Shown here: in pieces, positions 36,701 to 39,700 of the stretch
Layout of the letters: each line of letters starts with the position of its first letter
How positions within the stretch are numbered: position 1 is the first letter of the stretch
NCBI GenBank assembly: GCA_947568835.1
Contig: OX387604.1
Location: forward strand, 4,258,001 to 4,322,000
DNA from: Protonemura montana
Taxonomy: Eukaryota; Arthropoda; Insecta; Plecoptera; Nemouridae
Reading direction: 5' to 3'
Length of the DNA: 64,000 bases
Program-made: the position numbers and the translations under genes
Notes under the pieces: model-generated
What the model was told of the DNA's origin: nothing
Seen by the model: the letters and a program-made list of their open reading frames with translations, nothing else
The model's database searches: none

Positions 36701-39700
36701 GCATTAAAGACACTTGGTGTTATTAATGATAGAATTCTAACCATAGAACGTGTTAATTGGGAGCTCGTCCTAAGCTTTGTGTGCGTTATTTGCGAGCATT
36801 GGAATTTGCTTGTGTTTGTTGTATCATGACTAAAATTAATTGAGCGAGCCTCCCACAAAATGCGAAATCTAGTGTTGTCGGTCGAGGAGCAGACGAAGTT
36901 GTTGCTGGAAGTAGAGTCGACCAGTGCTGTCGGGATGGAAGATTTAGCGGCAAATATTGCGGAGTTACTAACAGGACACCGTCGTCGAACCGTACAACGC
37001 CACCCTCTCCGTTCACCAGCTGATCGAGAACACCGACGAAACCTACTGCATCGACAACGAGGCCCTCTACGACATCTGCTTCCGAACCCTGAAGCTGACC
37101 ACATCTGAATGTCTTGCATGATCGCGAAACGTCGCGATCACAGTGCCGCGATCTTTACCGAGTGATCTTACGAGGCAGTGTTTTTATTTTGGCTTTAAGT
37201 TGCAAAATATTTGACTGTTTTATTTTATAGATATAAATTTAGGTCACGAATTTAATTAGTTTTAGTCAGTGAACTGGATGCTGTCGGGTAGATCCCGAAA
37301 AGCAAAAGCATTTACAATTGGGATGCAGACGAACTCTGGCCCTTTGCTTTGACGTTCTATCGCCCGAGGAGTAATTCGCCGCGGTGGAGCGTCACGTGTT
37401 TACTATGAGATTAACACCGGAGGCTATTCTCAAAGAGTTTGTCCCCGTAGCTCTCATCGGAGACGCGAAATTACGATGGAGTTTGTGCGGACGATCCCAA
37501 TCATGTCCCGAGTTCGACAAGGACTTAAGGCAGGCACAACCGTAATCGGCGGTTGCAGCAAGAGCTCAGCCATAGGTACCAGCCCCAAGATGTGCACCAA
37601 TGTTATCGGTGACCCAGAGGAGAAAGCAGAGAAAAGCGGAAAGGTTATATTGCGCAAGCCACCTCATTTTTTAAGGGCATTCTCTAAGGTCACCAATTTA
37701 CGACGATGTTGGCACTAATAAATTAAGCCAAGAGATGAGAGAGCTAGAGCAGTGAAAGGAGAGCCCATCCATCTCGTGATAAAGTGGACAATAAGGACCT
37801 GGCATTCGTCCCCCTCTCTTTCTCCAACGCTACGTGTGATAACACGGCTTCATGGCCTGTTTTTGTTGCAGCAGCCATCACAGTGCCTTGTGGATCCAAA
37901 GCAGGCGGGAAACCAGCTCGCAGGGGCGAGTCAGGCACGAAATGAGTGACTGCGAGGCGTGTCCTAGCTGGGAGGACCACCACTCACACCACTGACTGCA
38001 TGCAGGTAGTTCCGTCATCCACGATCAGGAAGCCTGAAGTCTTATTGACGAATGGCAAAAAAGAAATCCCCGAGCTGCTCAACACGGGATTGTCGAAAAT
38101 CTGCTGGGTATGGCCCGACTCCAGGCAACCATGGACACGGGAGCAAAAATGTAGCCGGGGACAGGGAATCTCCGACAGGTGGTGGGAATGGCTGGAGCGA
38201 CCCTGCGAATCCGCTTTCATGCGATTGGCAGGGTGGAAGCCAATTACAAAGCTCCTTCCATATCCCAGGTATTGCAGTGTCGGTCACTTTATTACCGGCT
38301 TAGATTACCTTGAGCAATTAGAATATCGGTACACGTAGCAGGAGGACGCAGTGCTGTTTCACTCTACAAACTCGTGCAAACCCAGTTCGCTTTTCACACC
38401 ATGCACTGTATCTACACCGGAGCTCACAGCTCCACAATTTTTAGATACGCTGCTTGCAGACAATATTGCCGAACCCTCACAAAGCAATTAGGTCTCTTGT
38501 CCCGTAATAGTGACCAAGAAACCCACAGGGAGCAGGCATATAATGGCGATTAATTTCAAAGATGCTACCAGAGAAGAACAGTGGCAACAGCATGGCATGA
38601 ATTTTCAAATGCATTGCTTGTGTTTTCTTGCCAGTAGTTTGATGTTGGATTTTAAGGCAGTAATAATTCATTGAGAAATCAGAGATCTGTGTGCTGAGTG
38701 AGCAATACAGCTGTCAGACTTAGTTTGGCGTCCACAGATGCAGTACTATGTATTTTACTATGTATGTATTATGTATTATGTTGGCATCGGTACAATCAAT
38801 TTATATACCTAGGTTGATCACGATCTCCTTACCACGCCAAGCTTATTTAGATTTTTAAGTAAATGCCAGTTTGGATTTACATACAAACATACTTTAAATA
38901 TCATTTAAGGCATATTATTGTCATCATTTTCATATCATTAAATATCATAAATGACGATTTCCCAAAGCGCGTACTTTTACCAGGCTTAACGCCATCATAG
39001 TGGTTAGATACCAAATCCACATTATCCCAGTTACTAAATGAGACTTAGAAAAGCATTGGTGGACCCAAGAATAACATTTTCTTGTCCTGCAGTTGCTTTT
39101 TTTTGTCATAGTTAAAATCGCATTGCACAAAACCCTCAGTGAGAAAGAATTTTACTATTACAGTATAATCTTTGTAATTACTTTCTTTACACAGCCACCT
39201 CCATGCCACCATAGTTTGCATTCTTGGCTAGCCTGTGCCTAGCCCGACCAGATTCCTGAAGACCATTGCAAGATACCCCTGGCCCTACGGCATTAGCATC
39301 GAAATCCCTCTGACACAACCCTGTGCATTTAATGTCCTAAGCCTAAGGTTAGAAATATTTTTCTGCGGTTATTAGTATGCAGAATATGTATTTACTTGTC
39401 ATTTTAAATTTCCATTCAAGGTCTAGTGTTCTTCTTTTGCAACTTGTCAAATTTCACTTCAGTGCAATAGCAGCGCTCAGGCAGACCTACTACAAGGGTG
39501 AGTTACTTTACTTATTTAAAGACCAATCAAAGTATCTGTTTTCAATTCAACTAACTTCAGTGAATATGTGTAAACTAATTTTTTCATTCACATTTGCTTA
39601 GTGTTCAATTCTCGTCTCAACATCTATATCTAGTTTAAATTTACCGTTTTAAAACTTGTATGTCTCTTGTTCATTCACTATTTTTATTTACTTTTTAATT

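What the first reader, a model, noticed from the sequence alone, without database searches (positions are those of the whole stretch)
36975..37103. A 43-codon beta-tubulin piece captured inside a dead Gypsy-type retrotransposon
The piece is open, matches beta-tubulin nearly perfectly and has C/G-rich third positions, yet no other tubulin exon is present and identity stops sharply at both ends. It lies between the LTR remnant and the pol remains. Everything around it is decayed, so either it arrived late, or the element carried it and it is younger or better kept than the rest. Host-gene capture by an LTR element is rare enough to be worth checking.
Basis: partly seen in the sequence, partly recalled or inferred. 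Interest (0 to 1): 0.75.

Follow-up and report, generated by a model that had tools for sequence, protein, structure and literature searches.

The report
Late patch insertion in dead retrotransposon
A 292-base insert made of a beta-tubulin gene fragment joined to a scrap of another chromosomal locus sits in the gag gene of a decayed retrotransposon, and most likely patched a DNA break after the element died, so it is a tidy example of a known process and not a gene carried by the element.

Summary
Bases 36975-37103 encode beta-tubulin residues 177-219 and match one host gene (C13:3029149-3029277) at 127 of 129 bases with sharp ends. The interpretation changes in three ways. (1) The piece is not alone: 20 unassigned bases follow, then 143 bases matching one other place in the genome search, C13:14107706-14107837. 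(2) Compared with gag of a relative, gag stops at 36974 and resumes at 37267 with no inferred base missing, so the insert is a 292-base composite, 36975-37266. (3) It is young relative to the element: 2/129 differences from its donor against 16/88 mismatches between the putative LTR remnants. If the piece were as old as these, about 13 changes would be expected in it. Neither of two relatives carries it. Best reading: a templated, filler-type insertion during repair of a break inside an already dead Ty3/Gypsy-like element, like human class 2 templated sequence insertions and 'gap-filling' captures in animal DNA transposons. It is probably not host-gene capture by a live LTR element. RNA versus DNA templates, and one event versus two, remain open.

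The parts
36975..37103 (+). 129-base fragment of a beta-tubulin exon (residues 177-219), same sense as gag
   Evidence: 127/129 identical to C13:3029149-3029277; beta-tubulin by phmmer
37104..37123 (+). 20 bases of unassigned sequence between the two donor fragments (non-templated or of unknown source)
   Evidence: best other match in the printed list has 2 mismatches of 20; by my own estimate about one such match is expected by chance in a genome of this size
37124..37266 (+). second donor fragment, from a place on C13 (minus strand)
   Evidence: 119 of 130 aligned bases identical, 3 gaps (one of 13, two of 1), to C13:14107706-14107837; a search with 901 bases of the donor's surroundings finds only itself and this stretch
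36860..36974 (+). gag, left of the insert (decayed)
   Evidence: ungapped match of 16 residues to the gag of the relative in L075; by score alone not significant (1005 of 5000 shuffles reach it); with that score on the same diagonal 3 of 5000 shuffles, within one codon 19 of 5000; a genome search with 36860-36973 as protein found only itself
37267..37545 (+). gag, right of the insert (decayed, frameshifts and stops)
   Evidence: 37269 onward aligns with the relative's gag (score 35, reached by 8 of 5000 shuffles); 37357-37536 45% identical over 60 residues to L075
36666..36753 (+). putative 5' LTR remnant, 3' part
   Evidence: direct repeat with 41899-41994, 72/96 columns identical, 16 mismatches and 8 gap columns, E 1.8e-9 or 1e-12 with laxer scoring
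36739..36782 (+). LTR end and likely primer-binding site
   Evidence: 37/44 and 36/44 identical to the same place upstream of gag in relatives L075 and L076
41899..41994 (+). putative 3' LTR remnant
40113..40259 (+). pol remnant, RNase H region
   Evidence: PF17919 E 1.6e-5 and PF17917 E 3.8e-4, both below Pfam's cut-off; the other 9 of 10 frames scanned gave no family; 40118-40411 is 72% identical to relatives on C4 and C16

Best explanation
A double-strand break (or collapsed fork) opened inside the gag remnant of an already inactive Ty3/Gypsy-like element. It was repaired by end joining that copied or captured about 129 bases of a beta-tubulin exon and about 143 bases of a second C13 locus, with about 20 bases of filler between them, and was sealed without loss of gag sequence. 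Shown: the composite structure, the donors, sharp ends, absence from the two relatives found, and youth relative to the putative LTR remnants. Supported by alignment: no loss of gag. Inferred: that it was one event, that a break started it, and which enzyme did the copying (polymerase theta end joining, or capture of a cDNA or DNA fragment). The piece has no function that we can see; it stays open because it is young and came from a strongly conserved gene. The confidence given covers late break-repair insertion, whether in one event (preferred) or two.
For: Composite of two donors about 11 Mb apart on another contig, plus unassigned bases. Gag flanks are collinear with the relative's gag and no base appears to be missing: last left codon = residue 54, first right codon = residue 56, residue 55 split 1+2 (worked out). 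No A-tract, no shared bases over 3 at the two ends, no terminal inverted repeat, judged by eye on the ends printed. Tubulin 2/129 against LTR 16/88: 13.4 changes expected in the piece if as old as the LTRs, P(2 or fewer) 1.5e-4; direct rate test p 0.005; both donor fragments together against LTR p 0.006. Insert size (292) lies within the 73-414 base range reported for experimental insertions in human cells (PMC5110952, section 4). In primate DNA transposons with captured sequence, 91 of 97 cases tested fit capture after the element had landed (PMC8277862, section 8).
Against: The outer junctions show no microhomology under the no-loss model (ends); sealing without deletion is rare with experimental filler DNA other than mitochondrial inserts (PMC2567098 passages). 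The two fragments differ in divergence from their donors (2/129 against 11/130): compatible with one event if both copies of the second fragment drift (p 0.14), but p 0.012 if the second donor is frozen, so two events are possible. The LTR yardstick is short (88 columns), its LTR identity is putative, and equal mutation rates are assumed; the second fragment alone is only weakly younger than it (p 0.037). The left gag match is not significant by score alone. Both donors lie on another contig, whereas 59.8% of captures in animal DNA transposons are intrachromosomal. A 3-base CAG on both sides could be read as a small target duplication.
Confidence: 0.72

Rival explanations
1. Capture by the element itself: during its last reverse transcription the enzyme switched from the element's RNA to beta-tubulin mRNA and to a second RNA and back, so the insert arrived with the element.
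For: The tubulin piece lies in the sense of gag; the second fragment would too if the putative start codon read by eye is real. Switching between unrelated packaged RNAs is described for LTR elements in plants (PMC13317346 passages).
Against: The tubulin piece is far less diverged than the putative LTRs. 0 of 2 relatives have it. Agreement in sense of both pieces has a one-in-four chance. Whether the second donor is transcribed is unknown.
Confidence: 0.13
2. Two separate late insertions: the second C13 fragment first, and the tubulin piece later beside it. (A variant within the best explanation, whose confidence covers both.)
For: Different divergence from the donors: 2/129 against 11/130 plus 3 gaps.
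Against: The tubulin piece abuts gag and the other fragment ends where gag resumes, with no gag apparently missing; two events would have to share a boundary. The difference is not significant if both copies of the second fragment drift (p 0.14).
Confidence: 0.2
3. A retrocopy (processed pseudogene) of tubulin made by a LINE-type enzyme, truncated and inserted into the element.
For: No intron in the piece (but the donor has none there).
Against: No A-tract, no stop or 3' UTR, no more than 3 shared bases at the ends, joined to a second locus.
Confidence: 0.02
4. Assembly or library artefact.
For: Reads not available.
Against: Two differences from the donor, diverged second fragment, no other copy of the flanks found; two chimaeric joins would have to fall in gag without loss.
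Confidence: 0.03

Closest known systems
Class 2 templated sequence insertions of the human genome (PMC5110952, abstract and sections 4, 8, 9 read)
   Same: Copy of a distant locus, of similar size (73-414 bases, median 191, in experiments), no poly(A), no duplication of 5 bases or more, extra bases at a junction (here the inner one)
   Different: Two donors in one insert; no small deletion and no microhomology at the outer junctions; site is a dead LTR element; not shown to be polymorphic
Single-copy Pack-TIRs made by gap filling in animals (PMC8277862, passages and section 8 read)
   Same: Host gene sequence acquired inside an element after it had landed, at an internal site
   Different: An LTR element, not a DNA transposon; donors on another contig; no microhomology
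Host-gene capture by LTR retrotransposons through abnormal template switching (PMC13317346, passages read)
   Same: Host sequence between LTR and pol, tubulin in sense orientation
   Different: Insert appears younger than the element and is not in the two relatives found

Membership tests
Class 2 templated sequence insertion | Insert copied from a distant place in the genome | tested here: met
   Donors on C13, window on C16
Class 2 templated sequence insertion | No target duplication of 5 bases or more, no poly(A) | tested here: met
   Ends printed; at most CAG is shared
Class 2 templated sequence insertion | End-joining marks: microhomology, microdeletion or non-templated bases | tested here: inconclusive
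   20 unassigned bases at the inner junction; none of the marks seen at the outer junctions
Class 2 templated sequence insertion | Repair of a double-strand break | not testable with these tools
   Inferred from structure
Gene capture by a live LTR element | Insert as old as the element or older | tested here: not met
   2/129 against 16/88; rests on a short, putative LTR alignment and equal rates
Gene capture by a live LTR element | Insert shared by further copies of the element | tested here: inconclusive
   0 of the 2 relatives with a gag match have it, but they are only 43% identical in that gag piece; no near-identical copy of this element was found, so daughter copies could not be tested
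LINE-type retrocopy | 3' end of the mRNA with poly(A) | tested here: not met
   Piece ends 684 bases before the end of the donor's open frame
Ty3/Gypsy element (the host element) | LTRs, primer-binding site, gag, reverse transcriptase with RNase H | tested here: inconclusive
   LTR pair and primer-site region, gag by relatives, RNase H below Pfam's cut-off
Ty3/Gypsy element (the host element) | Order RT, RNase H, integrase in pol | not tested
   -
Helitron or TIR transposon carrying gene pieces | Terminal inverted repeats (TIR) or TC...CTRR with a hairpin (Helitron; motif recalled) | tested here: not met
   By eye on the ends of the 292 bases printed: neither

The most novel reading that the evidence does not exclude
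The insert records RNA-templated break repair in an animal germ line: a single repair event strung together reverse-transcribed pieces of two different transcripts, both in sense, inside a dead LTR element, without loss at the break.
Probability: 0.12. Interest if true: 0.5.

Novelty: new member of a known kind. Interest (0 to 1): 0.3.

Why it matters
It shows that a fragment of a conserved gene, open and nearly perfect, can sit in a retrotransposon without having been captured by it. Gene fragments found in dead elements can be dated against the element's own LTRs before gene capture is claimed. If many such composites exist in this genome they would be a readable record of germ-line break repair and of which sequences serve as patches.

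Tried and rejected
It is a 258 Mb genome in 34 contigs.

Exon shuffling: rejected. The donor's open exon stretch runs on for 471 bases upstream and 684 bases downstream of the piece. As read from the frames, four of the six loci (L003, L005, L006, L008) have an intron-like break just before this stretch, while L002 (the donor) and L004 do not.

Source of the 20 bases: one pattern search with up to 3 mismatches; 278 forward and 182 reverse matches, control (pattern read backwards) 1 and 6. Most of the places printed are one repeated motif with 3 mismatches; only one place other than the window has 2. Derivation from that repeated motif was not tested. Not assigned.

Whether the second donor is transcribed: about 440 bases downstream on the donor strand a short open start followed by GT can be read by eye. 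No gene was recognised among the open frames of L012 and L078; no family search was run on them. No claim is made.

Left gag flank: by score alone its match to the relative is not significant (1005 of 5000 shuffles), and a genome search with it as protein found only itself. It is used only together with the diagonal test (3 of 5000).

A scan for bacterial-type promoters and terminators at 36900-37300 is not informative for such a genome and was not used.

Papers: PMC5110952 abstract and sections 4, 8, 9; PMC8277862 passages and section 8; PMC13317346, PMC2567098, PMC7615360 passages only; others seen as search listings. A search for beta-tubulin, gene fragment, retrotransposon and captured together gave 3 papers, none of which by title or abstract start concerns this (listing only).

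Full report
What is there. Bases 36975-37103 read as 43 codons of beta-tubulin, residues 177-219 by comparison with solved structures (E about 1e-23, one residue different in the alignments shown). In the window's own genome (258 Mb, 34 contigs; the window is C16:4258001-4322000) the piece has 9 matches: itself, one at 127/129 (C13:3029149-3029277) and seven at 73-89% (alignments). The 127/129 donor is an apparently intact beta-tubulin gene: its 428-codon open exon stretch matches solved beta-tubulins from residue 20 to residue 447; the first exon was not located. The piece is codons 158-200 of that stretch, with no intron at either end. Of the two differences, GTC against ATC is most likely new in the piece, since the donor and four of the five paralogues compared have G there and the fifth has C. 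GAC against GAT is unresolved, four of five paralogues having C as in the piece. A search with 1551 bases covering the donor gene finds 24 stretches, of which only this one lies in the window.

The insert is larger than reported. The search with 37104-38600 finds one other place, C13:14107706-14107837 on the minus strand, matching 37124-37266. Of 130 aligned bases 119 are identical, with three gaps. A search with 901 bases of the donor's surroundings finds only itself and this stretch. Between the tubulin piece and this second fragment lie 20 bases whose best other match in the printed list has 2 mismatches; by my own estimate about one such match is expected by chance.

The host element. A direct repeat (36666-36753 and 41899-41994, 72 of 96 columns identical, E 1.8e-9 and 1e-12 with laxer scoring) brackets gag and pol remains. 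The end of the first copy and the following bases match the same place upstream of gag in two relatives at 37/44 and 36/44. The 37375-37545 frame finds these two relatives (C4:414337-414495 and C16:21494616-21494768, both 43% identical, in open frames of 476 and 266 codons). The pol part finds the same two and a third on C14, among other repeats. An RNase H region is recognisable below Pfam's cut-off; the other 9 of 10 frames scanned gave nothing. In four blocks that together cover most of what aligns to the relative L075 I count 8 stops in about 251 codons, in changing frames (60 + 95 + 52 + 44 codons; the remaining L075 rows overlap these or are small), so the element is long dead. Its assignment to Ty3/Gypsy is likely but was not fully tested.

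Where gag is broken. Each flank was translated and aligned apart to the gag of the relative L075. The last full codon on the left (36971-36973) falls on residue 54 of the stretch compared and the first full codon on the right (37269-37271) on residue 56. One base on the left and two on the right make up residue 55. The right match is reached by 8 of 5000 shuffles. The left match is weak by score (1005 of 5000), but only 3 of 5000 shuffles reach that score on the same diagonal, 19 within one codon. The right edge inferred this way (37267) is the base after the second donor's similarity ends (37266). So the foreign DNA is 292 bases, 36975-37266, and no gag base appears to be missing. A 3-base CAG flanks both sides; a duplication of that size cannot be excluded.

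Age. The tubulin piece differs from its donor at 2/129. The putative LTR remnants differ at 16/88, a local alignment that if anything understates their divergence. If the piece were as old as the LTRs, 13.4 changes would be expected in it alone, P(2 or fewer) 1.5e-4; as a rate test p = 0.005; both donor fragments together against the LTRs p = 0.006; the second fragment alone p = 0.037. The two fragments agree with one event if both copies of the second fragment drift (p = 0.14), less well if its donor is frozen (p = 0.012). I prefer one event, because the two fragments together fill exactly one gap in gag. The two relatives with a gag match do not have the insert: one search lists no match at either place, and a comparison of the 292 bases with the fetched loci, L075 and L076 included, gives none there. 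They are distant relatives, so this does not test daughter copies of the element; none was found.

How it works, most likely. A break inside the dead element was repaired with copied or captured pieces of two distant loci and some extra bases. Such insertions are known: experimental ones in human cells are 73-414 bases long, often with microhomology or added bases, and class 2 polymorphisms lack poly(A) and target duplications (PMC5110952 sections 4 and 9). In primates, 91 of 97 tested captures of host sequence inside DNA transposons fit acquisition after landing (PMC8277862 section 8). Sealing without loss is reported for 54% of mitochondrial insertions in primates but rarely with other filler (PMC2567098 passages). 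Copying from several templates in turn is proposed for some insertions at human meiotic breaks (PMC7615360 passages). Capture by the live element through template switching (PMC13317346 passages) is disfavoured by age and by the relatives. It keeps some room because the tubulin piece lies in the sense of gag and because the yardstick is short. No function is proposed: the frame is open because the piece is young and its donor strongly conserved.

Verdict. Real, well-defined, and explained by a known kind of event. The useful additions are the second donor, the 292-base extent of the insert and the relative age.

Noticed in passing
window 34792-35775: Roughly 980-base repeat with at least about 30 further copies over most of its length, most at 84-88% identity; several lie within 0.5 Mb of a contig start (which scored 40 of 4007 candidates).
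   Followed up: no
window 35900-36032: A unit that occurs in head-to-tail series of about 91 bases at other places such as C16:21.24 Mb and C11:18.07 Mb.
   Followed up: no
window 39166-39324 and 39409-39817: Stretches inside the dead element that match other dispersed loci (C2, C3, C5 and others) at about 70-85%; probably further elements nested in it.
   Followed up: no
L004 1501-1623 and 2382-2489 (C13:7.25 Mb): A beta-tubulin gene with an inverted partial copy of itself about 0.8 kb downstream.
   Followed up: no
L003 1777-1823 (C2:11.9 Mb): A beta-tubulin gene with a second, diverged copy of part of the same exon close by.
   Followed up: no
window 31100-33574, minus strand: 824-codon open frame with no relative at E 0.001 in the protein search (7615 candidates sharing words).
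   Followed up: partly
L075, L076: The two better-kept relatives of the element carry long repetitive stretches in the gag frame before its start and in a later open frame, which differ in length between the two copies.
   Followed up: no
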